DNA from: Actinokineospora terrae
GTDB taxonomy: Bacteria; Actinomycetota; Actinomycetes; Mycobacteriales; Pseudonocardiaceae
Length of the DNA stretch: 64,000 bases
NCBI RefSeq assembly: GCF_900111175.1
Contig: NZ_FOGI01000010.1
Span: forward strand, 248,001 to 312,000
Reading direction: 5' to 3'
In this document: one piece after another, positions 2,570-14,431 of the stretch
How positions within the stretch are numbered: the stretch's first letter is position 1
Layout: the number at the start of each line of letters is the position of its first letter
Position numbers and translations under genes: made by a program
The notes under the pieces: model-generated
The model's input: only the letters and a program-made list of their open reading frames with translations
Databases searched by the model: none
Told to the model about the DNA's origin: nothing

Positions 2570-3289
2570 CTAGGGCAGCAGCTCCGCCGCGTGCTCCAGC
2601 AGCCGGTCGTAGGCGGCCGGGTCGTCGGCGTCGATGACCGGGAAGCCGACGCCGAAGTCGCCGTTGACCCACCTGGCGGACACCCCGGGGTTGGCCTCGT
2701 CGGTCCCGTCGTGCAGGAACACGTGCGGGCTGCAGTTGACCCTGCCGCCGCCCGCGGCCTCGAACTGGTCCATCACCGCGCGCCGGGCACGGCCGTCGTC
2801 GAGGGCCTCGGCCAGCGCCGTCACATCCACCACACCCGTCCCGCGCGCCACGTCCAGGATGACGTGCCGCATCGAGATCGTCCGACCCCCGGCCCAGAAC
2901 GCGACCCGCAGCGCCAGGTCGAGCGCCTCGCTCTCGGGCAGCCCCTGCGCCTTCGCCGCCTGCACCGCCTCCAGCGCGGGCAGCGTCGTCACCGGGTACG
3001 TCCAGTCCGGGCCCTGCCAGAGCCGCCAGCCCGCCTCGGGCTCCAGCGCGCCGACCACGGCGATCTCGGAGTCCACCCCGGGGCGCTCGTTGACCGAGTG
3101 GTTGAACAGCTCCAGCGGGAACGCCCGGTGGTCGAACCACAGCCGCCCGGCCAGCCCCAGCCTGCGGCGCGCCTCGTGCAGCCGGTACACCCCCAGGTGG
3201 GCGAACGAGCAGTTCAGGTCGCTGTACACCACGATGCTGCTCGGGGCCTTGGGCAGCCGCGGGTCGACCCCGGACCGGTCGGTGCTCAT
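2570..3289 (-). CDS. DsbA/FrnE-family thioredoxin-fold protein
   Basis: A 239-residue thioredoxin-fold protein. It opens with VVYSDLNCSFAHLG, where the first cysteine of the usual CxxC of DsbA/FrnE proteins is kept and the second position is His. The cis-proline loop is represented by NCSPHVFL. The family includes disulfide oxidoreductases and 2-hydroxychromene-2-carboxylate isomerases; with one active-site cysteine, a glutathione- or mycothiol-linked isomerase or transferase is as likely as an oxidase. The start ATG at 3289 has GGAGG upstream and overlaps the stop of the MarR gene (ATGA), so the two are co-transcribed and translationally coupled. No signal peptide is seen, so it is probably cytoplasmic. 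Confidence 0.75.
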   Translation of the reverse strand: MSTDRSGVDPRLPKAPSSIVVYSDLNCSFAHLGVYRLHEARRRLGLAGRLWFDHRAFPLELFNHSVNERPGVDSEIAVVGALEPEAGWRLWQGPDWTYPVTTLPALEAVQAAKAQGLPESEALDLALRVAFWAGGRTISMRHVILDVARGTGVVDVTALAEALDDGRARRAVMDQFEAAGGGRVNCSPHVFLHDGTDEANPGVSARWVNGDFGVGFPVIDADDPAAYDRLLEHAAELLP

Positions 3290-3774
3290 CGGGTGTCCTC
3301 CTTCACCGGGTCGCAGGCGCCAGGGCGGTGGGCCTGGGCCACTTTGAGCAGGCCGGTGGCGCAGACCTGCTTCTCCTCGTCGGTCAGGTGCGCGGCGAAG
3401 TGCTGCTCGATGCCGCGCAGGTAGACCGGGACCGCGCGGCGGAACGCGGAGCGGCCCTCGTCGGTCAGCACCGCCCACACCACGCGGCGGTCCTGCCCGT
3501 CGGTCTCCTTGCGCACCAGCCCGTCGGCCGCCATCTCGTCGACCAGCCTGCTGACCCGGGTGCGGCTGAGCACGACCCGGTCGGCCAGCTCGCGCATGCG
3601 CAGCCCGGGAGCCTCGGCCGCCTGGAGCTCGAGCAGCACGTCGTACCAGGTCAGCGGGACGGTGCCCGCCCTGTCCAGCTCGGCCTCGATCGCGCGCAGG
3701 GCCGCGTTGTAGGCCAACAACACGGACCGCCACGCCTCGATGCCGAGATCGTCGGTGCGCAGGGGGAGTCGCAT
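3286..3774 (-). CDS. MarR-family transcriptional regulator
   Basis: A 162-residue winged-helix regulator. The DNA-recognition helix region reads MRELADRVVLSRTRVSRLVDEMAADGLV and the wing contains DGQDRRVVWAVLTDEGR, both characteristic of MarR proteins. The ATG at 3774 is preferred over one at 3810, which would lie inside the divergent operator and promoter region. It probably represses its own operon (with the DsbA-like gene) and the divergent rhodanese/YceI genes through the palindromes at 3797-3836. MarR proteins usually respond to phenolics or oxidants; with rhodanese and DsbA-like neighbours, a thiol or oxidant signal is a reasonable inference. Confidence 0.85.
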   Translation of the reverse strand: MRLPLRTDDLGIEAWRSVLLAYNAALRAIEAELDRAGTVPLTWYDVLLELQAAEAPGLRMRELADRVVLSRTRVSRLVDEMAADGLVRKETDGQDRRVVWAVLTDEGRSAFRRAVPVYLRGIEQHFAAHLTDEEKQVCATGLLKVAQAHRPGACDPVKEDTR

Positions 3775-3796
3775 GCCGATGAGTGTAGGCGATTGC

Positions 3797-3836
3797 GTGC
3801 GTCCGCACATATCTGTTACGGTGCGTGCAGACGCAC
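3797..3836. promoter_or_regulatory. Paired palindromic operator between marR and rhodanese genes
   Basis: Two inverted repeats lie in the divergent intergenic region: GTGCGTCCGCAC at 3797-3808 and GTGCGTGCAGACGCAC at 3821-3836. Both share the GTGCG/CGCAC arms. Their spacing and position, just upstream of the marR start and about 100 bases before the rhodanese start, suit autoregulation by the adjacent MarR protein. Binding itself is inferred. Confidence 0.6.
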
Positions 3837-3935
3837 ATTTCTCGGACCGTCACCGAGCACCGCGTCGCGACCGCACCACCACACGCCCGGCCCGCCGCAC
3901 CCGGCGCCGCCGGTCACACCAGAAGGGGGGCCGTC

Positions 3936-4265
3936 ATGGCTCGCGTCATCACCACCGACGAGGTCAAGCAGCGGATCGACACCGGGTCGGCTGTCGTGCT
4001 GGAGGCACTGCCGCAGTCCTACTACGACGAGGCGCACCTGCCCGGCGCGAAGAACCTGCCGCTCGACGAGGTGGACGACCGCGCCGCGGCGCTCATCCCG
4101 AGCAAGGACGCCGAGGTCATCGTCTACTGCTCCGACGACACCTGCTCCAACTCGGGCATCGCCTCGGAGCGGCTCGCCGAGCTCGGCTACACGAACGTGT
4201 TCACCTACGTCGCGGGCAAGCGGGACTGGGTCGGCTCCGGCCTGCCGACCGAGTCCGCCGAATAG
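3936..4265 (+). CDS. Rhodanese-like domain protein
   Basis: A 109-residue single-domain rhodanese. Typical landmarks are the N-terminal LEALPQSYYDEAHLPGA (equivalent to the D-x-R-x-x-x-E-x-x-x-G-H-I-x-G-A region) and the active-site loop VIVYCSDDTCSNS followed by ASERLAELGYTNVFTYVAGKRDW. The loop has two cysteines, and the first is in the place of the persulfide-carrying residue. The ATG at 3936 follows AGAAGGGGGG; the longer in-frame start at 3825 would put translation inside the operator. It probably transfers sulfane sulfur in the cytoplasm. It is followed 29 bases later by the YceI gene, and both are likely controlled by the divergent MarR. Confidence 0.85.
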   Translation: MARVITTDEVKQRIDTGSAVVLEALPQSYYDEAHLPGAKNLPLDEVDDRAAALIPSKDAEVIVYCSDDTCSNSGIASERLAELGYTNVFTYVAGKRDWVGSGLPTESAE

Positions 4266-4294
4266 CCGCCGAGCGCACCGAGAAGGAGACAGTC

Positions 4295-4885
4295 ATGACC
4301 AACACCGAATCGGCAGGCACCGCAGCGGGCCGCGTGCTCGGCGGCGTGGAACTGCCCGTCGCGGGCACCTGGAAGGTCGACCCGGGGCACGCCGAGGTCG
4401 GCTTCGTCGGCAGGCACTTCATGCTCACCAAGGTCCGCGGCCGGTTCACCGGCGTCGAGGGCGTGGTGACCGTCGCCGAGCGGCCCGAGGACAGCTCCGT
4501 CGAGGTCACCATCGACATGGCCTCGGTCACCAGCGGCGACCAGACCCGCGACGACCACCTGCGCTCCGACGACTTCTTCGACGTCACCGAGCACCCCACC
4601 GCCACCTTCCGGTCCACCTCGGTGTCCTGGATCGGCGCCGGTGGCGTCCTGGAGGGCGAGCTGACCATCAAGGGCCTCGCCCGCCCGGTGACGCTCAAGG
4701 TCGAGCACCTCGGCCTGGTGCGCGACCCGTGGGGCAACGACCGCGCGGTGTTCTCGGCCAAGGGCCGGATCAACCGCGAGGACTGGGGCCTGAGCTGGAA
4801 CATGGTGCTCGAGGCAGGCGGCATCCTGGTCTCCAAGGAGATCGACCTCGAGCTCGAGGTGGAGCTCATCCACGAGAAGGACTGA
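4295..4885 (+). CDS. YceI-family lipid-binding protein
   Basis: A 196-residue lipocalin-like YceI domain. Hallmarks are GTWKVDPGHAEVGFVGRHFMLTKVRGRF near the N-terminus, DDHLRSDDFFDVTEHPTATF in the middle and GELTIKGLARPVTLKVE. YceI proteins bind isoprenoid quinones or similar lipids in a beta-barrel. No signal peptide is evident, as is usual for actinobacterial members. The ATG at 4295 has GGAGA about 7 bases upstream. It is the second gene of the rhodanese operon and is followed by two strong hairpins. These genes are often linked to MarR-controlled stress responses. Confidence 0.9.
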   Translation: MTNTESAGTAAGRVLGGVELPVAGTWKVDPGHAEVGFVGRHFMLTKVRGRFTGVEGVVTVAERPEDSSVEVTIDMASVTSGDQTRDDHLRSDDFFDVTEHPTATFRSTSVSWIGAGGVLEGELTIKGLARPVTLKVEHLGLVRDPWGNDRAVFSAKGRINREDWGLSWNMVLEAGGILVSKEIDLELEVELIHEKD

Positions 4886-5708: not shown

Positions 5709-6896
5709 GTGAACACCACGCCGACCACCACAGAGGTGTTCTCGACCGGGTTGGTCGACCTGACCCAGCACGAGATCCAGGCGCTCAAGACCGAGTTCAA
5801 CCTGGCCGACGCGCACACCCACCAGCGGCAGTCGCCCAGCCAGCGCGCGATCGTGGCCCGGCTGCCGCAGCTGTGGTACGAGGCCGAGGAAGGCACACAG
5901 GCCGACTACGAGCACCGCTTCACCGAGGCGTTCTTCCGGCTGCACGGCCAGCACACCGCGCTGACGCTCAACCGCACGCTGCTGTCCTACGCGGCGTCCA
6001 TCTCGACCCTGGTCGCCGCCATGTACCTCAAGCGGCACCGGATGTCGGTCTCGCTCGTCGAGCCCTGCTTCGACAACCTGCACGACGTCCTGGGCAACGT
6101 CGGCGTGCCGCTGTACCCGGTCGCCGAGTCGCTGCTCGACGAGGTCGGGTCCATCTACGACAACCTCGCCGCGCACGTGCGCACCGACGCGCTGTTCCTG
6201 GTGGACCCGAACAACCCGACCGGCGCCACCCTGCTGCGGCACGGCAGGCGCGGGTTCGAGGAGGTGCTGCGGTTCTGCCGCGACCACGACAAGCTGCTGC
6301 TGATCGACTTCTGCTTCGCCTCGTTCACCCTGTTCGACGACACGCTGGAGCGCTTCGACATCTACGAGCTGCTCGAGGACTCCGGCGTCACCTACATCGC
6401 GCTGGAGGACACCGGCAAGACCTGGCCGGTGCAGGACGCCAAGTGCGCGCTGCTCACCAGCAGCCGCGACATCTGGCTCGACGTCTACAACATCCACACC
6501 AGCGTGCTGCTCAACGTCTCGCCGTTCGTGCTCAACATGCTCACCCAGTACATCGAGGACTCCGCCGCCGACCGGATGGCCTCGGTGCGCTCGGTGCTCG
6601 ACACCAACCGCGACGCCGCCATCCGCGCGCTGGCCGGGTCGCCGCTGAGCTACCAGGAGCCGGTCGCGAAGGTGAGCGTCGCCTGGTTCCGCGTGCTGCC
6701 GCCGCTGTCGACGGCCAGCAGGCTGCAGAGCGTGCTCGCCGACGACGACCTCTACGTCCTCCCCGGCCGCTACTTCCACTGGAGCGAGCCCAGCCGCGGC
6801 GAGGAGTACGTGCGGGTGGCGCTGGCCCGCGACCCGCGCATGTTCGCCAAGGCGATGACCAGGCTGCGGGCCGCCGTCGACGCGCAGGTCCGGTAG
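5709..6896 (+). CDS. rohP: PLP-dependent L-arginine oxidase/hydroxylase (RohP/MppP-like)
   Basis: A 395-residue fold-type I PLP enzyme. The N-terminus ([19 protein letters not shown], then [16 protein letters not shown]) closely follows MppP, the arginine oxidase/hydroxylase of enduracididine biosynthesis, as I remember that sequence. The PLP lysine is K237 in [16 protein letters not shown] binds the cofactor and FHWSEPS lies near the C-terminus, as in MppP. These enzymes use O2 and PLP, with no other cofactor, to turn L-Arg into 4-hydroxy-2-ketoarginine, the first step to azomycin (RohP) or enduracididine (MppP). The downstream DapA-like aldolase and diiron oxidase favour the azomycin reading. 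The GTG start has a strong GGGGGAGG upstream. First gene of a seven-gene operon. Confidence 0.8.
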
Positions 6897-7411
6897 TGGC
6901 GCCCGCGACGCTGGTCGCCGAGTTCGTCGACGCCGCGCTGTTCATGGGCATGCACAGCGCCGACGAGCGGATCCGCCTGGCCTGCAAGGGGTTCTTCGTC
7001 GACCGGCTGGCGACCGGGGTGGTGATGAGCCTGGAGCAGGTGGGCCGCTGCGACGACATCGTGTGGTCCTACCCGCGCGAGGTCCAGGACGCCTACTACC
7101 CGTTCATGGACAACCTGCACACCGACATGACGGTGTCCAGGGTCGGCTACACCGCGACCGACGTCACCGCCGCGTTGGGGTTCACCGACCTGGCGCACCT
7201 GCCGCTGACCGAACGGCTCACCGTGAGCCAGGTCGTGGCCAGGGGCGGCACGCTGTTCACAGTGGACAGTCGATACCCGACCGGCGGCGGGCTGCCGGTG
7301 CGCGGACCGGACCGGGTCGACACCGAGCCCGCGTTCCCGGACAAGCTCGAACAGCTCTACCGGGAGTCGCTCGTGCTGCGGGTCGCCCATTCCCCCGGCG
7401 CGGGGCGGTGA
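6896..7411 (+). CDS. Small uncharacterised protein at the RohQ position
   Basis: A 171-residue protein whose GTG start shares a base with the TAG stop of the upstream gene, so it is translationally coupled to the arginine oxidase. It begins ATLVAEFVDAALFMGMHSADERIRLACKGFF and contains SLEQVGRCDDIVWSYPREVQDAYYPFMDNLH. I do not recognise a characterised fold with confidence; the early Asp and spaced acidic residues faintly recall PIN-like domains. By position (second, between RohP-like and RohR-like genes) it corresponds to RohQ, which I recall as the enzyme assigned to formation of 2-aminoimidazole from guanidinoacetaldehyde. That role is inferred from gene order only. Confidence 0.6.
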   Translation: MAPATLVAEFVDAALFMGMHSADERIRLACKGFFVDRLATGVVMSLEQVGRCDDIVWSYPREVQDAYYPFMDNLHTDMTVSRVGYTATDVTAALGFTDLAHLPLTERLTVSQVVARGGTLFTVDSRYPTGGGLPVRGPDRVDTEPAFPDKLEQLYRESLVLRVAHSPGAGR

Positions 7412-7418
7412 CCCGGCG

Positions 7419-8231
7419 GTGGTGACCGCTCTCGGTGTCCCCAGCGGCGGCGTGATCGTCCCGCTGGTCACCCCGCTGGCCGCGGACGGGTCGGTGTCCG
7501 GACCGGACGTGGCCAGGCTGGTGGCGGCGGTGGCCGGGCACGTGGTGGCCCTCGTGCCCGGCCTGAGCACCGGCGAGGGCTGGGCGCTCGACGACGACCG
7601 CTGGTCGGCCGTGGTCAGCCACACCCTCGCCCACCGCAGGGGATTGCCGGTCCTGGCGGGCACCCAGCGGCGCACCACCGCCGAGGTCGTGGCCAGGGCG
7701 GCCAAGGCGGTCGCCCTCGGCGCGGCGGGTGTCGTCGTCCCGACCCAGTCCGGGCCGGGCGTCACCCAGCGGGAGATGTACGAGCACTACGTCGCGGTCA
7801 CCGCGACCGTGGCCGCGCCTGTCGTCGTGTACCACGAGTCCGCGGTGACCGGGAACCTGCTCGACCCGGCCACGCTGCTGCGGGTGTGCGAGTTGGAGGG
7901 GGTCGTCGCCGTCAAGGACAGCGGCGGCGACCCCGCCGCCACCCGCGCCCTGCTGGCCGCCGCGCCACCGGTCGCGGTGTGGCAGGGCTACGAGGACCTG
8001 GTCGCGCAGACGCCCGGGGTGGACGGCTGCGTGCTGGCCCTGGCCAACCTGGAACCGGACCTGTGCGCCCGCTACCTCGCCGGGCAGGCGGCCGCGGCCG
8101 ACCTGGACGCGGCGTGCGCCCGCTACCGGCTCACCGAGCCGGACTGGTACCGGCACGTGAAAGCACACCTGTGCCGCCGAGGGGTCATCTCGACCGCGGC
8201 GGCCGTGACCCCGGTGGGGGAGGAACCTTGA
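7419..8231 (+). CDS. rohR: DapA-family aldolase (RohR-like retro-aldolase)
   Basis: A 270-residue dihydrodipicolinate synthase/N-acetylneuraminate lyase family TIM barrel. It shows IVPLVTPLAADGSV at the N-terminus, the carboxylate loop LSTGEGW, the catalytic Tyr at about 138 (VVYHES) and the Schiff-base Lys at about 166 (VVAVKDSGG); the 28-residue Tyr-Lys spacing is that of the family. In the azomycin pathway a DapA homologue cleaves 4-hydroxy-2-ketoarginine to pyruvate and guanidinoacetaldehyde, which suits this position. It is shorter than canonical DapA (about 290-300), with a trimmed C-terminus. The GTG start lies 7 bases after the previous stop, and the end overlaps the next gene. Confidence 0.8.
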   Translation: MVTALGVPSGGVIVPLVTPLAADGSVSGPDVARLVAAVAGHVVALVPGLSTGEGWALDDDRWSAVVSHTLAHRRGLPVLAGTQRRTTAEVVARAAKAVALGAAGVVVPTQSGPGVTQREMYEHYVAVTATVAAPVVVYHESAVTGNLLDPATLLRVCELEGVVAVKDSGGDPAATRALLAAAPPVAVWQGYEDLVAQTPGVDGCVLALANLEPDLCARYLAGQAAAADLDAACARYRLTEPDWYRHVKAHLCRRGVISTAAAVTPVGEEP

Positions 8232-9094
8232 CGACGGCGGTGGACAAGGACCTGTCCCTGCTGCGGACCGGCGACCGGCCGCAGCGGGACCTGTTCCTGG
8301 ACAACAGGAGCGTGCCGACCGCGGCCCGCTACGCGCGGATCGAGGCGGCCGAGGCGGACTGGATCGTCCCGCTGGTCGCCGACATCGAGGCCGACACCGC
8401 GCCGCTGGCCACCAGGGCGGACTGGGTCGCCGCGCTGGCGGTGCTGCTGGCCGAGGAGCGCGACGGCGCGCCCAGCAGCCGGTACCTGGCCGACGAGGCG
8501 ACCAGGGAGCAGTTCGCGGTCGTGGTCGAGGAGTTCGCACCGGACGGGCTGACCGAGGCGCAGAACTTCTTCCCCGCGGTGGCGCGGCTGCCGATCCGGG
8601 CGCAGATGGCGGTGATGCGGGTGATGATCGACGAGTTCGGCTGCGGCAACATCGCCCAGGCGCACTCACAGCTCTACCGCGACCTGCTCGCCGAGCTGGA
8701 CCTGCCCGACGAGCTGCCGGAAGTGCTGCGCGACACCAACGACGAGACCTACGCGTTCCTGAACTCGTTCTACTGGCTGGCTTCCCGCGCGGTCGACGTC
8801 GAGTACTTCCTCGGCGCGCTGGCCTACCTGGAAGCCGCCATCCCGGACGCGTTCGCCTTCCAGGCCCGCGCCTGCGAGCGGTTGGGCATCGCCAACGGCC
8901 GCTACTACACCGAGCACATCCACATCGACGACTTCCACATGAGGGAGATGCAGACCGCGATCAAGGAGTACGAGGCGGCTCGCGGGCTCGACCCGACCAA
9001 GTTGCTGGTCGGCGCGACCCTGCTGTCGTCGTTGCTCGGCGCGGCGATGGACGCCGCGGTGGCGAAGGCGGTCGCCAAGACCGCCGGGCGGTGA
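8228..9094 (+). CDS. rohS: Haem-oxygenase-like diiron oxidase (RohS-like N-oxygenase)
   Basis: A 288-residue all-helical protein of the haem-oxygenase-like diiron oxidase/oxygenase (HDO) superfamily, with SznF, UndA and BesC. Metal-ligand candidates are E136 and H146 on one helix (IDEFGCGNIAQAH), E202 in LAYLEAAIP, and H230, D234 and H237 in EHIHIDDFH. HDOs use O2 at two irons; RohS oxidises the amine of 2-aminoimidazole to the nitro group of azomycin. The TTG start overlaps the upstream stop (TTGA) and is preceded by GGTGGGGGAGG. The adjacent Rieske protein is a plausible electron donor. An N-hydroxylase acting on another guanidine product is the main alternative. Confidence 0.8.
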   Translation: MTTAVDKDLSLLRTGDRPQRDLFLDNRSVPTAARYARIEAAEADWIVPLVADIEADTAPLATRADWVAALAVLLAEERDGAPSSRYLADEATREQFAVVVEEFAPDGLTEAQNFFPAVARLPIRAQMAVMRVMIDEFGCGNIAQAHSQLYRDLLAELDLPDELPEVLRDTNDETYAFLNSFYWLASRAVDVEYFLGALAYLEAAIPDAFAFQARACERLGIANGRYYTEHIHIDDFHMREMQTAIKEYEAARGLDPTKLLVGATLLSSLLGAAMDAAVAKAVAKTAGR

Positions 9095-9360
9095 CCGTGG
9101 CCGGGGAGCCCGTGGTCCGCCAGGTGTCGGAGCGGGAGGTGGCGATCACGGTGGGGGAGCGGGAGTTCCGGATCGCCGCCGAGTGCCCGCACCGCAAGGG
9201 CCGACTGGTGCACGCGCACGTCAACCCGCGCACTCTGCGGGTGACCTGCCCGCTGCACAAGTCGGTGTTCGACCTGGCCACCGGGTGCCGGGTCGCGGGA
9301 CCGGTCAGCGGCGACCTGCCGGTGACCGAGGTCGTCCCGGAACACCGACCCGGTACGTGA
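9091..9360 (+). CDS. rohT: Small Rieske [2Fe-2S] ferredoxin (RohT-like)
   Basis: An 89-residue Rieske domain with both cluster-binding boxes: C32-P-H34 and C53-P-L-H56, followed by KSVFDLATG. The spacing of 18 residues between the boxes is normal for Rieske ferredoxins. It is a soluble electron carrier; coupled by a GTGA overlap to the diiron oxidase gene, it probably feeds electrons to that enzyme for repeated N-oxidation. A ferredoxin reductase is not encoded nearby, so a housekeeping one must serve. The symbol is assigned by position and type and is less certain than for the PLP enzyme. Confidence 0.8.
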   Translation: MTVAGEPVVRQVSEREVAITVGEREFRIAAECPHRKGRLVHAHVNPRTLRVTCPLHKSVFDLATGCRVAGPVSGDLPVTEVVPEHRPGT

Positions 9361-9378: not shown

Positions 9379-10401
9379 ATGAGCCAGACATACTCCGCCG
9401 AGGAGGTGTGGCTGCCCGCCTCGGAACTGGTGGCGGACTGGGACTCCGGGTTCCACGACCTGCTGCTCGGCGACCGGCTGCGGATGAGCGCCTACGCCGA
9501 GGCCATCGCCGAGGTGGTGCGCCCGGGCGCGGTGGTGCTCGACCTGGGCACCGGAACCGGGATCCTGGCCAGGTGGGCGCTGGAGGCGGGCGCGGCCAGG
9601 GTGTACGGGCTCGACTTCGCCGAGTCGGTGCTGGCCACCGCCGCGGCCCGGCTCGCCGAGGCGGGGTTCGCGGAGCGGTTCGTGCCGGTCGCGGGCCTGT
9701 CGTTCGAGGTGGACCTGCCGGACCGGGTCGACGTGATCATCTCGGAGACGCTGGGCAACCTGGTCGACAACGAGGGCTGCGTGGCGATCCTGGCCGACGC
9801 CCGGCACCGGTTCCTCGCCGAGGGCGGCGTCGTGCTGCCGCGCTCGGCCGAGTGCTACCTCGTGCCGGTCGCCGCGACCACCGCGCACCAGCGGGTCACC
9901 GCGGGCGACGTCCACGGGGCGCAGTCGATCGCGGGCAGCGACGGGGGACTCGGGTCGCGTGACCCGTTCTCGCTCTACTACGACGCGATCGTCCCGATCT
10001 CGACGCACCTGGCGTCGCCGCGCGTGGTGATCTCCCAGGTGTTCGGCGCGGACGCGGCCGCCGCGGGCACGGTGTCCACTCCGTACACGGTTCGCCGGGA
10101 CGGGGTGTTCACCGGGTTCAAGGGGTACTTCGTGTCGACCCTGTCACCCTCGGTGGCACTGGACCTGTCGGGCGACGACATCGCCGCCGGGTCTACTTCG
10201 GACAGTTGGAAGCACGCTTACCTGCCGGTGCGGGAAGCGGTCGAGGTGCGTCAGGGGGATCGGCTGGTGCTGGACTACTCGTGGACCCCGCGGGGTTCGC
10301 TGGGCAACGACTACCGGTGGAGCGGGCGGGTGCTGCGCCGGGGCGAGGTGGTCGCGGAGTTCGACCACGGGACCGCGGCGCTGGTGCGGGGTGCGGCATG
10401 A
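9379..10401 (+). CDS. PRMT-like SAM-dependent N-methyltransferase
   Basis: A 340-residue class I methyltransferase. Motif I is VVLDLGTGTGILARWALEAGA with the acidic strand end VYGLDFAES. The segment SETLGNLVDNEG matches the double-Glu loop (S-E-x-x-G-x-x-x-x-x-E) of protein arginine methyltransferases, followed by RFLAEGGVVLPRS and a C-terminal beta-barrel-like half. This family includes enzymes acting on free arginine, such as SznE of the streptozotocin pathway. In this operon a guanidine or aminoimidazole nitrogen is the likely acceptor. ATG at 9379 has GGGGGAGAAC upstream, and the end overlaps the next gene (ATGA). As I recall, a methyltransferase is not part of the described azomycin core, so it suggests a modified product. 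Confidence 0.75.
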   Translation: MSQTYSAEEVWLPASELVADWDSGFHDLLLGDRLRMSAYAEAIAEVVRPGAVVLDLGTGTGILARWALEAGAARVYGLDFAESVLATAAARLAEAGFAERFVPVAGLSFEVDLPDRVDVIISETLGNLVDNEGCVAILADARHRFLAEGGVVLPRSAECYLVPVAATTAHQRVTAGDVHGAQSIAGSDGGLGSRDPFSLYYDAIVPISTHLASPRVVISQVFGADAAAAGTVSTPYTVRRDGVFTGFKGYFVSTLSPSVALDLSGDDIAAGSTSDSWKHAYLPVREAVEVRQGDRLVLDYSWTPRGSLGNDYRWSGRVLRRGEVVAEFDHGTAALVRGAA

Positions 10402-13400
10402 TCGACAGCCCGACCTCGATCGACAGCGCCGCCCTGGCCGAGAGCGGTGAGGTGACCGTCGCGCAGCGCAGGCCCCGGGTGCGGGAGTACGACGTCGTCG
10501 CGCTCCAGGTTCCCATCGCCTACAACGCTTTCGGCGACCACGACCGCCGCGGCGCGCTGTACGTGCTGGCCGAGAACGCTCCCGTGCTGCGGGCGGTCGC
10601 GGCGGACTGGCCGGACCCGTTCCCCAGCTACCTGACCGACCCCGACCTGGTGCCCCAACCGCACCCGTTGGCCGTGCCGCTGGTGCTGCGCGCCCGTCGT
10701 GGTGAGCTGGTGCGGGTCCGGCTGACCAACGAGCTGCCGCGCCCGGTCGGCATCACCGCGCAGGGCGTGCGCTACGACGCCCGCCGCCACGACGGCCTCG
10801 ACGCGGGCGCCAACCCGGACAGCTCGGTCCGGCCGGGCGGGACCCGGGTGTTCGAGTGGCTGTGCGAGCACGAGGGCGTGTTCCACTTCGGCGACATGGC
10901 CGACGTGCGCGGCGAGGGCACGCAGAGCCGCGGCCTCAACGGCGCGCTCGTGGTCGAGCCGCACGACGCCACCTGGACCGACCCGCGCACCGGCGGTCCG
11001 CTGCCCAGCGGCATCTCCGCCGACGTGCACACCCCGCGGCGCAGCTTCCGCGAGCACGTCATCTCCATGATGGAGTACCCGAGCAACGACAACCCGGTCA
11101 GCCCGCCCGCGGGCCACGACCACGGCGGCGGGCACGACCACGGCGCGCCGCTGCTGGCCGGGATGGCGCCGTTCGCGGTGCCCACCGCCGAGCGGCCCGA
11201 CGACATCGGCGACCTGGAACCGGTCAGCAACGCGATGCTGCCGGTGAACCTGCGCATCGAACCGCTGGGCTGGCGCCAGCACGTCTACAACCAGCTCATG
11301 GAGCAGCACCGGCTGGACCCGGTGCGCGACGCGCAGACCGGCGAGGAACTGCACCACAGCTCCTGGGTGTTCGGTGACCCGGCCACCCCGGTGTTCTTCG
11401 GCTACTGCGGCGACGACGTGGTGCTCCGGTTGGTGCACGGCGGGATGCGCGACACGCACGTCTTCCACACCCACCTGCACCAGTGGCGGGTCGACCCGGA
11501 CGACCACGGGTCGCCGGTGGTCGACTCGGTCAGCCTCGGGCCGCAGCAGGGGCTGACGCTGGACCTGGTCGGCGGGGCGGGATCCACCCAGCACGCGGTC
11601 GGCGACGCGGTGTGGCACTGCCACCTGTACCCGCACTTCCACATGGGCATGTGGGGTCTGCTGCGCGCGTTCGACACGCTGCAGGACGGGTCCGGGCACT
11701 ATCCCGATGGGACGGTCATCGAACCGCTGGTCCCCCTGCCGGGCAACCGACCGCCGACGCCGACCGCGCAGCGGCCCGGGTGGCCCGCGTTCATGCGGGA
11801 GGCGGCGACCTTCCCGCGGAAGTCGCCGCGGCCGCCGCGCACGCCGGGGATGCCCGCGGGGATGGGGCGTGAGCCCACCGCGTTGGAGTCGGCGGCGTTC
11901 GTGCCGGACGCGCAGCCGGGGGAGGCGTTCACCAAGATCGGGCCGGTCGGTGCCCCGGTGCGGCGGTACCACCTGGTGGTCACCACGGCGACCCTGGTGC
12001 AGACCGGGGACGTCCACGACCACGGCAGTCCACTATGGCATGACCACAGTGGACACTTCTTCGCACTGCACGACGACGTGGAGGCGGCGGGCGGGATCGA
12101 GGAGTTCCGGCGGCAGGTCACCGCCGGTGAGCGCACGGTCGAGCCGCTGGTCATCCGGGCGCGCAAGGGCGAGGTGCTGGAGATGACCCTCACCAACCAC
12201 CTGCCGACCGGAAAGCAGGCGGCGACGGCGTTCGACCCGGAACTGCCCTACCAGGCCGAATGCGGCCTGCACTCGCACCTGGTGAAGTACGACCCGCTGG
12301 TCTCCGACGGCGCCTGCATCGGCTGGAACTACCTGTCCGCGACGACCACATCGGACTTGCGCGACGAGCACGCCGACGGCTACCACTCGTGGGTGTTCCG
12401 CTGGTACGTCGACGACGACTTCGGGACCGTGCTGTTCCACGACCACCTGCTGCCCAACTACCGGCAGCGGCACGGCCTCTACGGCGTGCTCGTCGCCGAA
12501 CCCGAGGGCGCGACCTGGGTCGACCCGGCCGACCACGGCCGGGAACTGCCCTCCGGCAGCCAGGCCGTGGTGCGGCTGCCGGACGGTTCGGCGTTCCGCG
12601 AGGCGGTGCTGGCGGTCGCCGACTACGTGCCGTCGTTCGAGCACTCCGAGCACGGCCACGGCGGGGCCATCAACCCCCCGTCGGCGCCAGGCGGGATGGA
12701 CGAGCAGGGCGTCATGACCGTCAACTACCGCAGCGAGCCGCTCGACCTGCGCGGCGGCGACCCGGCCGACTGGTTCTCCAGCGAGGTCCACGGCGACCCG
12801 ACCACCCCGCTGCTGCGCGGCTACCCGGGCGAGTCGATCCGGCTGCGGCTGGTCGACGGCTCGTTCGACAAGCAGCACAGCTTCGTCACCCACGGCCTGC
12901 GCTGGCGCGACTGGCCCGACCGCGCCGACACCCCGTGGCGCTCCCAGCAGACCCTCGGTGTCTCCAACGCGGCCGACCTGCACCTGGAACCCGCTGCGGC
13001 GCCTGGTGATCACCTGTGGTCGTTCGCTGCCGCGGACGACCTGTGGCTGGGGTGCTGGGGGTTGATCCGTCTCCATGAGACCGAGCAGGGCGACTTGCCC
13101 GCGTTGCCCGGCGCGCACCACGGCGGGGCTGTGCTGCCCGAGCGCGGTGCGTTGCGGCGGTTCACGGTTAGGGCGCGGGCGCGGACGTTGGAGTACAGCG
13201 GGGAGCGGTTCGACCCGTTCGGCCTGGTGTATGAAGTGGACGGTGCGGAGTTCGACGGTCCGCTGGTGCTGCGGGCCAGGGTGGGGGAATGGGTCGCGGT
13301 GACGCTGGTCAACGAGCTCGACGGGCCGCCGCCCGCCAGTGAGTTCGACCCGGTGCTGCTGGCCCGCGACAACCCGGCCCGGCGCGTGGTGTCCGAGCGG

Positions 13401-14153
13401 GTGTCGCTGCACCCTGTCGGGCTGCGCTACGACACTGCCGAGCACGACGGCACGCGGGTCGGTGAAAACCCGGACAGCACAGTGAAACCGGGCAGCTCGC
13501 ACACGTACTGGTGGCATGTGGACGAACCGGGTGTGGTCCTGCTGCGCGACCACGCCGACCCGATCACCCACCTGCGGCGCGGCCTCATCGGCGCGCTCGT
13601 CGTGGAAGAGGCGGACGCGACGCCGTACGACCTGCACGGCCACCGCTGCTGGACCGGCGCCCAAGCCGTCATCCGCCGACCGGGCAGGCCGCGCACGGTC
13701 GAACAGGTCATCATCGCCCAAGACGGCCTCCGCCTCTTCCACGACGGCGACCTCACCCAACCGGTCCGCGACCTGGTGTCCGAGGCCAAGGACGACCTGG
13801 GGCAGAAGGCGTACAACTACCGCTCCGCCCACCTGCACCCGGTCAGCCCGGCCCTGGACGACCGCACCCCGCCGACGCCGCTGGTGCGCGCCGAGGTGGG
13901 GGACGAGGTGGTGCTGCACCTGGTGATCGCCGGATCCCGCATCCGCAACCAGGGCTTCTCGGTCCACGGCCAGGTGTGGGACGTGTCCGAACGCGGCCGG
14001 GGGCCGTACGTGTCCACTTTGGGCGCACTGGCCACGGGATCGGCCCGCACCGTCCGGTTCACACCACGCCACCCCGGCGACTACGTGTACCGAACCCCCA
14101 ACCTGCACTGGGGCGTCAGCGAGGGCTGGTGGGGCCTGATCCGGATCTCCTAG
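10398..14153 (+). CDS. Giant multicopper-oxidase-like protein with permuted copper motifs
   Basis: A 1251-residue protein built from about six cupredoxin-like domains in three related blocks (about 30-430, 520-970, 990-1251). Copper-ligand motifs are intact in only two places. DTHVFHTHLHQW (about 352-363) and VWHCHLYPHFHMGMWG (about 405-420) are the C-terminal motifs of laccase-type oxidases, including the His-Cys-His and axial Met. GLHSHL (623-628) and FHDHLL (680-685) are the N-terminal His-x-His motifs. The third block has lost them. A His-rich stretch (GHDHGGGHDHG) lies at 239-249. No signal peptide is seen, so it is probably cytoplasmic. It likely couples a one-electron oxidation to O2 reduction as a tailoring step. 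Last gene of the operon. Confidence 0.8.
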   Translation: MIDSPTSIDSAALAESGEVTVAQRRPRVREYDVVALQVPIAYNAFGDHDRRGALYVLAENAPVLRAVAADWPDPFPSYLTDPDLVPQPHPLAVPLVLRARRGELVRVRLTNELPRPVGITAQGVRYDARRHDGLDAGANPDSSVRPGGTRVFEWLCEHEGVFHFGDMADVRGEGTQSRGLNGALVVEPHDATWTDPRTGGPLPSGISADVHTPRRSFREHVISMMEYPSNDNPVSPPAGHDHGGGHDHGAPLLAGMAPFAVPTAERPDDIGDLEPVSNAMLPVNLRIEPLGWRQHVYNQLMEQHRLDPVRDAQTGEELHHSSWVFGDPATPVFFGYCGDDVVLRLVHGGMRDTHVFHTHLHQWRVDPDDHGSPVVDSVSLGPQQGLTLDLVGGAGSTQHAVGDAVWHCHLYPHFHMGMWGLLRAFDTLQDGSGHYPDGTVIEPLVPLPGNRPPTPTAQRPGWPAFMREAATFPRKSPRPPRTPGMPAGMGREPTALESAAFVPDAQPGEAFTKIGPVGAPVRRYHLVVTTATLVQTGDVHDHGSPLWHDHSGHFFALHDDVEAAGGIEEFRRQVTAGERTVEPLVIRARKGEVLEMTLTNHLPTGKQAATAFDPELPYQAECGLHSHLVKYDPLVSDGACIGWNYLSATTTSDLRDEHADGYHSWVFRWYVDDDFGTVLFHDHLLPNYRQRHGLYGVLVAEPEGATWVDPADHGRELPSGSQAVVRLPDGSAFREAVLAVADYVPSFEHSEHGHGGAINPPSAPGGMDEQGVMTVNYRSEPLDLRGGDPADWFSSEVHGDPTTPLLRGYPGESIRLRLVDGSFDKQHSFVTHGLRWRDWPDRADTPWRSQQTLGVSNAADLHLEPAAAPGDHLWSFAAADDLWLGCWGLIRLHETEQGDLPALPGAHHGGAVLPERGALRRFTVRARARTLEYSGERFDPFGLVYEVDGAEFDGPLVLRARVGEWVAVTLVNELDGPPPASEFDPVLLARDNPARRVVSERVSLHPVGLRYDTAEHDGTRVGENPDSTVKPGSSHTYWWHVDEPGVVLLRDHADPITHLRRGLIGALVVEEADATPYDLHGHRCWTGAQAVIRRPGRPRTVEQVIIAQDGLRLFHDGDLTQPVRDLVSEAKDDLGQKAYNYRSAHLHPVSPALDDRTPPTPLVRAEVGDEVVLHLVIAGSRIRNQGFSVHGQVWDVSERGRGPYVSTLGALATGSARTVRFTPRHPGDYVYRTPNLHWGVSEGWWGLIRIS

Positions 14154-14160
14154 CGCGCGC

Positions 14161-14229
14161 CCGTCTCCCCCGTACCGCTGCGGTGGTGCGGGGGAGACGG
14201 ACATGGGGGACCCAGCAGCTCCCCCATGT
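14161..14229 (+). terminator. Double hairpin terminator of the azomycin-like operon
   Basis: Two perfect inverted repeats follow the stop at 14153: an 11-bp stem CCGTCTCCCCC at 14161-14171 with 14190-14200, and a 10-bp stem ACATGGGGGA at 14201-14210 with 14220-14229. They end the 5709-14153 transcript. From 14230 to 14431 I see no gene. Confidence 0.75.
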
Positions 14230-14431
14230 CCTGACACACCGTCGTCCCGGCCACCCCGCGCCCCTCCTTCGGGTGGAGTCCCACCACCGGGGTCGGGAGT
14301 GTGGTCCCCTGGGGGTACCGACCCGGGTCGAGCCCCGGGGCGTCACCCAGGGACGGCGCCAGGGGGTGAATGTCTCACCCGGTCGGGTAACCCCGCCCGC
14401 CGTGGCGGCGGGGGTGGCGCACGCTCGGCTG

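What the first reader, a model, noticed from the sequence alone, without database searches (positions are those of the whole stretch)
9379..14153. Azomycin-like core extended by a methyltransferase and a giant copper oxidase
The operon does not stop after the Rieske gene. A PRMT-like methyltransferase with a double-Glu loop and a 1251-residue multicopper-oxidase-like protein follow, the last coupled by ATGA and then a double terminator. Neither belongs to the azomycin core as I know it. A methylated and further oxidised nitroimidazole, or a different N-oxidised guanidine product (compare SznE plus SznF in streptozotocin), would be a new product class.
Basis: partly seen in the sequence, partly recalled or inferred. 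Interest (0 to 1): 0.85.

Follow-up and report, generated by a model that had tools for sequence, protein, structure and literature searches.

The report
Extended azomycin-type gene cluster
A soil bacterium carries the genes for the antibiotic azomycin joined to a guanidine-type methyltransferase and a very large copper oxidase, and the same extended set recurs in many relatives, so these clusters may make something other than plain azomycin.

Summary
A rohPQRST core (5709-9360) runs on into a PRMT-fold methyltransferase (MT, 9379-10401) and, coupled by ATGA, a 1251-residue MnxG-like multicopper oxidase (MCO, 10398-14153), followed by two strong hairpins.

Related loci fall into two RohS clades. 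Clade A (24 loci) always has MT: 17 of 17 places found with RohS alone as bait, plus 7 found through MT bait or the window itself. Clade B (30 loci) never has it. Clade A also carries MarR, rhodanese and YceI genes that were not seen in clade B. MCO is in 15 of 24 clade-A and 0 of 30 clade-B loci, with complete copper ligands. Three genomes carry one cluster of each clade, which argues for different products.

Laboratory enzymes appear to come from clade A: S. cattleya RohP (99.7% identical to one locus) and, by matching published identity values, K. azatica RohS.

Best reading: a variant azomycin pathway whose 2-aminoimidazole (a cyclic guanidine) is N-methylated, with an optional later copper-oxidase step. 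The product is not shown. None of the papers searched describes MT or MCO with roh genes; the founding 2019 paper is not held.

The parts
2570..3289 (-). DsbA-like protein (PF01323 in the L007 copy), 239 aa, start overlaps the MarR gene end; shared by clades A and B
   Evidence: seen in 22 of 24 clade A, 24 of 30 clade B
3286..3810 (-). MarR-family regulator, clade-A specific
   Evidence: Pfam MarR_2; 23 of 24 A, 0 of 30 B
3936..4265 (+). rhodanese-domain protein, 109 aa, clade-A specific
   Evidence: PF00581; 24 of 24 A, 0 of 30 B
4295..4885 (+). YceI-like protein, 196 aa, clade-A specific, no obvious signal peptide by eye
   Evidence: PF04264 (L004 copy); 23 of 24 A, 0 of 30 B
5709..6896 (+). 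RohP, PLP-dependent arginine oxidase (GTG start assumed)
   Evidence: 70% identical to S. cattleya RohP 6c3a
6896..7411 (+). RohQ, DUF6190, cyclodehydratase
   Evidence: role from PMC10724926 passage
7419..8231 (+). RohR, DHDPS-fold retro-aldolase
   Evidence: role from PMC10724926 passage
8228..9094 (+). RohS, haem-oxygenase-like diiron N-oxygenase; probably the AtRohS tested in PMC10724926
9091..9360 (+). RohT, Rieske ferredoxin, presumed electron donor of RohS
9379..10401 (+). PRMT-fold SAM methyltransferase (MT), 340 aa, Glu123/Glu132 double-Glu loop
10398..14153 (+). MnxG-like giant multicopper oxidase (MCO), 1251 aa; ligands H354 H357 H359 H407 C408 H409 H413 M418 H625 H627 H681 H683
   Evidence: all 12 invariant in the 16 aligned
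14163..14231 (+). two tandem stable hairpins at the operon end

Best explanation
This is a conserved variant of the azomycin pathway (clade A). L-arginine is turned by RohP, RohR and RohQ into 2-aminoimidazole, and RohS, fed electrons by RohT, oxidises the amino group to nitro (known chemistry of the family, not shown for this strain). The added MT uses SAM to methylate a guanidinium-type nitrogen. I think its substrate is 2-aminoimidazole, a cyclic guanidinium that suits a double-Glu pocket, so the product would be an N-methyl-2-aminoimidazole that RohS oxidises to an N-methyl-2-nitroimidazole (inferred). The MCO is an active-site-complete, O2-reducing copper oxidase that acts as an optional later step in a subset of clusters: oxidising or coupling the methylated product, or re-oxidising toxic reduced (hydroxylamino) forms in the producer (inferred, weak). 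MarR, rhodanese, YceI and the DsbA-like protein are probably regulation and self-protection (inferred).
For: MT travels with clade-A roh: 17 of 17 clade-A places found with RohS alone as bait, and 0 of 30 clade-B places. In 392 Streptomyces genomes, MT occurs in the same 12 as clade-A RohS. MT and RohS distances agree (r 0.949, 23 loci), as do MCO and RohS distances (r 0.955, 14 loci), 0 of 999 permutations as high. Three genomes (G206, G509, G796) hold one cluster of each clade. Both double-Glu residues are kept, and the model matches PRMT5 and PRMT6 over nearly its full length. S. cattleya RohP, which acts on plain L-arginine (PMC7497351 passage), is a clade-A enzyme, so methylation before RohP is not needed. 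Clade-A RohS enzymes make azomycin from 2-aminoimidazole only slowly: kcat 0.23 and 0.42 per min, Km 391 and 183 uM for KaRohS and SaRohS (PMC10724926 passages; KaRohS as clade A is itself inferred, and SaRohS, 59% identical to KaRohS, is presumed clade A). RohS is the core protein with most clade-discriminating residues, 11 against 0-3 in the others, one next to predicted ligand Glu110.
Against: No product, expression or enzyme data for MT or MCO exist here. AtRohS, probably this very protein, does convert unmethylated 2-aminoimidazole to azomycin in vitro, so the cluster could simply make azomycin. Slow turnover may reflect the artificial PMS/NADH reductant instead of a wrong substrate. At the 11 discriminating RohS positions a solved outside relative (9pfw) matches clade A at 5, clade B at 1 and neither at 5, so the change may lie on the clade-B side. 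The MT family also occurs at 41-45% identity without roh genes in three metagenomic or single-cell genomes (L016-L018), and weaker PRMT-like relatives (about 30-35%) occur in other genomes of the family and elsewhere in the window's own genome, so a protein substrate is possible. MCO is missing genome-wide from 9 of 9 MCO-less clade-A genomes, so it is not needed for the basic product.
Confidence: 0.45

Rival explanations
1. The cluster makes plain azomycin; MT, MarR, rhodanese, YceI and MCO form a self-protection and regulation set, MT inactivating azomycin or its precursor inside the cell and MCO oxidising reduced, reactive forms.
For: AtRohS and KaRohS give azomycin from 2-aminoimidazole in vitro. 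MarR, rhodanese, YceI and MT are all clade-A-specific and move together.
Against: Clade-B clusters persist without these genes (0 of 30 seen; L086 shows almost no upstream sequence). A double-Glu loop suits a cationic guanidine better than the nitro product. Three genomes keep both cluster types.
Confidence: 0.27
2. MT acts first, SznE-like, on free L-arginine; Nomega-methylarginine then enters RohP, RohR, RohQ and RohS to give a methylated imidazole or another N-oxidised guanidine.
For: MT shares the fold and both double-Glu residues with SznE-like proteins next to SznF relatives. SznE makes Nomega-methylarginine (PMC11705231 passage).
Against: Only 26-27% identity; SznE-like proteins have S-H-W where MT has D-S/C-W. 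RohP of clade A takes plain L-arginine, and only three RohP residues discriminate the clades. RohS lacks the cupin domain of SznF.
Confidence: 0.18
3. MCO is a metal oxidase (Mn, Fe or Cu) or other housekeeping passenger, not a pathway enzyme.
For: Full-length kinship to MnxG (9bxa, E 1.5e-194). 54-56% identical relatives lie near an ammonium-transporter gene and without roh genes in the fetched 20 kb in two genomes.
Against: MCO follows MT in all 15 loci that have it, lies between MT and the DsbA-like gene in 10 of them, overlaps MT by ATGA in the window, and its distances follow RohS (r 0.955). Of the eight close MCO relatives in 392 Streptomyces genomes, the six closest lie in roh clusters.
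Confidence: 0.3

Closest known systems
Azomycin (rohPQRST) pathway, S. eurocidicus / K. azatica / Pseudomonas
   Same: All five core genes in the same order; RohP 70% identical to S. cattleya RohP; RohS lineage shown in vitro to make azomycin
   Different: Further genes not named in the five-gene cluster as described in PMC12713392: MT, MCO, MarR, rhodanese, YceI
SznE/StzE arginine Nomega-methyltransferase of streptozotocin
   Same: PRMT fold, double-Glu loop, next to a haem-oxygenase-like N-oxygenase gene
   Different: 26-27% identity to SznE-like proteins, different His/Trp loop, no SznF cupin enzyme
PRMT5/PRMT6 protein arginine methyltransferases
   Same: Fold and double-Glu loop
   Different: 19-24% identity in the listed structural alignments; D-S/C-W in place of T-H-W; in a biosynthetic operon
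MnxG manganese oxidase (Bacillus PL-12 Mnx complex)
   Same: Full-length multi-domain giant multicopper oxidase
   Different: No contiguous mnxE/mnxF; type-1 copper His413 kept where the MnxG alignment has Ala; far below the NCBIfam MnxG cut-off

Membership tests
azomycin (roh) pathway | rohP, Q, R, S, T homologues adjacent and in order | tested here: met
azomycin (roh) pathway | RohS converts 2-aminoimidazole to azomycin | tested here: inconclusive
   Reported for AtRohS (PMC10724926 passage); that AtRohS is the window protein is inferred from matching identity values
azomycin (roh) pathway | end product is azomycin | not testable with these tools
   needs metabolomics
SznE-type free arginine methyltransferase | close sequence kinship to SznE-like proteins | tested here: not met
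   26-27% identity to the four aligned
SznE-type free arginine methyltransferase | coupled to an SznF-type HDO-cupin protein | tested here: not met
   RohS is 288 aa with only the HDO domain found
PRMT-fold methyltransferase | SAM-binding Rossmann domain plus double-Glu loop | tested here: met
PRMT-fold methyltransferase | T-H-W loop | tested here: not met
   D-S-W or D-C-W in 26 of 26 aligned; label of the loop is recalled
multicopper oxidase | type-1 and trinuclear copper ligand motifs | tested here: met
   12 of 12 ligands invariant in the 16 aligned; assignment of motifs recalled
MnxG (NCBIfam NF041487) | score above the curated cut-off | tested here: not met
   185 bits against 3100
MnxG (Mnx complex) | contiguous mnxE and mnxF | tested here: not met
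   Upstream neighbour is MT in 15 of 15 MCO loci; downstream is a DsbA-like gene in 10, another gene in the 4 Actinokineospora loci, contig end in L013. No search with MnxE/MnxF sequences was made. Requirement from PMC5622069 passages
MnxG (Mnx complex) | oxidises Mn(II) | not testable with these tools
   needs enzyme assay

The most novel reading that the evidence does not exclude
Clade-A roh clusters, including those from which S. cattleya RohP and probably K. azatica RohS were taken, do not make azomycin. They make an N-methylated 2-nitroimidazole (or other N-oxidised cyclic guanidine), in most lineages further converted by the MnxG-like oxidase, for instance by oxidative coupling. Azomycin formation in vitro would then be a shunt on a non-native substrate, and the copper oxidase the first of its giant family with an organic biosynthetic substrate (as far as I know).
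Probability: 0.33. Interest if true: 0.82.

Novelty: new variant of a known kind. Interest (0 to 1): 0.6.

Why it matters
Nitroimidazoles are clinical drugs and azomycin is the only natural one that I know of (recalled). A clade-wide methyltransferase and a copper oxidase on the same operon predict new natural nitroimidazoles, in several cases in named culture-collection strains. The clade split gives direct comparisons (A against B, MCO-plus against MCO-minus, and three genomes with both). It also suggests that the slow in vitro RohS activity may have been measured on a non-native substrate, which can be tested with one methylated compound. A member of the MnxG lineage tied to a small-molecule pathway would widen what that family is thought to do.

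Tried and rejected
SznE-plus-SznF type N-nitrosation: rejected as membership (26-27% identity, no cupin partner). MnxG membership: rejected. That MT or MCO is a chance neighbour: rejected. That MCO is essential to the pathway: rejected, since 9 of 24 clade-A loci lack it, and all 9 of those genomes were searched genome-wide without a match (in with a 317-residue piece). On the clade-A RohS tree MCO needs three changes (shuffled mean 7.4), fitting an old presence with losses.

I tried to place the S. eurocidicus cluster in a clade from the identity published against a Pseudomonas RohS. Solved RohS relatives 9pfw and 9pfx (the latter named PbrRohS) are 36.5-41.7% identical to clade A and 31.7-39.9% to clade B, so the published 40.6% does not decide. 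I looked for print on MT or MCO with roh in searches: none of the listings or passages I saw describes them. The original 2019 paper is not held, supplements could not be read, and PMC13274452 (section 15 read) names an azomycin enzyme AznD from a laboratory report that I could not see.

Bias and dropped rows: 12 of the 24 clade-A loci came from an MT bait (of which seven were re-found by RohS) and L069; I therefore give the RohS-bait count (17) apart. L040 duplicates L007 and was dropped. L042 MT was left out of alignments and distances (its frame runs long), and L013 MCO was left out of distances (contig end). One search is a pattern scan and not exhaustive, and the genome search samples a part of each group. 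Four clade-B rows (L048, L049, L066, L082) have only RohS and RohT. Upstream sequence is almost absent in L086 and downstream sequence is short in L068, so counts of neighbours there are lower bounds. L069, the exception for MarR and YceI, was checked onto its next contig piece without a match.

Full report
What is there. The window lies at G000:C13:248001-312000 in a 7.59 Mb genome whose nearest named relatives at this locus are Actinokineospora. On the + strand, RohP 5709-6896, RohQ 6896-7411, RohR 7419-8231, RohS 8228-9094 and RohT 9091-9360 follow each other with overlaps or gaps of a few bases. Pfam gives Aminotran_1_2, DUF6190, DHDPS, Haem_oxygenas_2 and Rieske. MT starts 18 bases further on, and MCO overlaps its stop as ATGA. 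Two adjacent hairpins follow (-69.2 kcal/mol, shuffles -46.5 +/- 3.4, 0 of 200 as stable); there is no T-tract.

Two kinds of roh cluster. RohS as the only bait found 33 of 392 Streptomyces genomes with a match (35 places) and 16 of 297 Streptomycetaceae genomes (17 places, five already seen). I fetched the contexts (seven of the 35 were already held) and mapped the window's proteins on them. Together with the 12 actinobacterial MT-bait loci, L069 and the window, 54 distinct RohS rows were built into a tree with the solved relative 9pfw. They split into clade A (24 rows, support 96/95) and clade B (30 rows, 97/91). MT is in 24 of 24 A and 0 of 30 B; of the A places found by RohS alone, 17 of 17. 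MarR is in 23 of 24 against 0 of 30, rhodanese 24 of 24 against 0 of 30, YceI 23 of 24 against 0 of 30 (each 17 of 17 among the RohS-bait places), and MCO 15 of 24 (9 of 17 by RohS bait) against 0 of 30. A DsbA-like gene is shared, seen in 22 of 24 and 24 of 30. L069 is the exception for MarR and YceI. One clade-B locus (L086) shows almost no upstream sequence. In the reverse direction, MT at E <= 1e-30 occurs in 12 of 392 Streptomyces genomes, and these are the same 12 that have a clade-A RohS. In 200 genomes of the window's own family, 3 have a close MT (E below 1e-100: the window's own, G167, G154); the next best is E 4e-29, so the trait is patchy. Three genomes hold one cluster of each clade: G206 (L010, L050), G509 (L044, L047), G796 (L077, L081).

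Links to characterised enzymes. The solved RohP of S. cattleya (6c3a) is 99.7% identical to the RohP of L079, whose cluster has MT and MCO; it is 69-81% identical to the other clade-A RohPs and 59-63% to clade B. A review passage states that S. cattleya RohP acts on L-arginine (PMC7497351). PMC10724926 (passages) lists KaRohS of K. azatica as 80.53% identical to K. viridis RohS and 64.07% to A. terrae RohS. L076 RohS is 80.534% identical to L078 and 64.074% to the window (A. diospyrosa L005 also gives 64.074%, and with another BLAST setting the first two values shift to 79.9 and 63.9). So L076 is very probably the K. azatica locus (MT present, MCO absent genome-wide) and the window probably A. 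terrae, whose RohS gave 12.2 uM azomycin in vitro against 4.2 for KaRohS. The same paper reports low activity for KaRohS and SaRohS. The five-gene S. eurocidicus cluster (PMC12713392, section 5 read) could not be placed in a clade.

The methyltransferase. It is 340 aa. Sequence hits are PRMT4/PRMT6. The AlphaFold model (pLDDT 85.1, pTM 0.85) matches PRMT5 best (7mxn, E 2.1e-23, TM 0.74 by query) and PRMT6 next. Glu123 is invariant and Glu132 is kept in 25 of 26; the loop that is T-H-W in many PRMTs (label recalled) is D-S/C-W. I obtained SznE-like proteins by searching 295 Streptomyces genomes with a stretch of SznF: 6 had a hit, 5 were fetched, and all 5 have an MT-like gene directly before SznF. 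Identity to MT is 26-27% in the four aligned. So MT is a guanidine-type methyltransferase by fold and pocket but not an SznE orthologue. More distant MT relatives (41-45%) occur without roh genes in three metagenomic or single-cell genomes, so a protein substrate is not excluded.

The oxidase. It aligns over its length with MnxG (9bxa, E 1.5e-194) but scores 185 bits against an NCBIfam MnxG cut-off of 3100. Twelve residues that fit the usual type-1 and trinuclear copper motifs (motifs recalled) are invariant in the 16 aligned; at one of them, His413, the MnxG alignment shows Ala. mnxE and mnxF, required for Mnx activity (PMC5622069 passages), are not contiguous. MCO is absent genome-wide from G203, G204 and G207, from G219, G293 and G311 (with a 317-residue piece) and from G620, G777 and G154. 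In 392 Streptomyces genomes ten have an MCO-like match: six in clade-A clusters, two (G296, G470) full length at 54-56% near an ammonium-transporter gene (Pfam) without roh in the fetched 20 kb, and two distant. MCO distances follow RohS distances (r 0.955 over 14 loci), and three changes explain its pattern.

How it most likely works. The core makes 2-aminoimidazole and oxidises it (pathway from PMC10724926 passage). A double-Glu pocket recognises a guanidinium; 2-aminoimidazole is a cyclic one, arginine an open one, azomycin is neither. Clade-A RohP accepts plain arginine, so I place methylation at 2-aminoimidazole, before RohS. RohS has 11 clade-discriminating residues (one next to the predicted ligand Glu110) while RohP has 3, RohR 2, RohQ 0 and RohT 0. 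This fits a changed RohS substrate, but pocket positions were not mapped on a structure, and the outside relative 9pfw matches clade A at 5 and clade B at 1 of the 11, so the change may be on the clade-B side. The MCO step is the weakest part: optional, late, substrate unknown.

Verdict. The new-product idea is reasonable and unproven. The most valuable consequence is that two of the enzymes used to define azomycin biosynthesis appear to come from the extended clade.

Noticed in passing
L048, L049, L066, L082 (RohS/RohT near 8-10 kb; in L082 near 2.5-3.7 kb): RohS plus RohT without RohP, Q or R, one subclade of the RohS tree. L049 and L066 carry a large NRPS-type gene (AMP-binding, carrier and condensation domains) nearby, and L066 also a zinc alcohol dehydrogenase, an amidohydrolase and a nucleotidyl transferase gene. 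A separate N-oxygenase cluster of unknown product.
   Followed up: partly
L071:8662-12393 and L072:7725-11501: Giant MCO relatives, 54-56% identical over full length, near an ammonium transporter gene (PF00909) and without roh genes in the fetched 20 kb.
   Followed up: partly
L016, L017, L018: MT-family proteins, 41-45% identical, in Diapherotrites, uncultured single-cell and Paceibacterota genomes, near Cdc6-like, MreB or trypsin-like genes and without roh matches.
   Followed up: partly
window 2570-4885: MarR, rhodanese and YceI genes conserved only with clade-A roh, and a DsbA-like gene shared by both clades; roles unknown, perhaps resistance to nitroimidazole.
   Followed up: partly
L087-L091: SznF relatives with an SznE-like gene directly before them in 5 of 5 fetched Streptomyces loci; in L087 and L089 a Rieske gene follows.
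   Followed up: no
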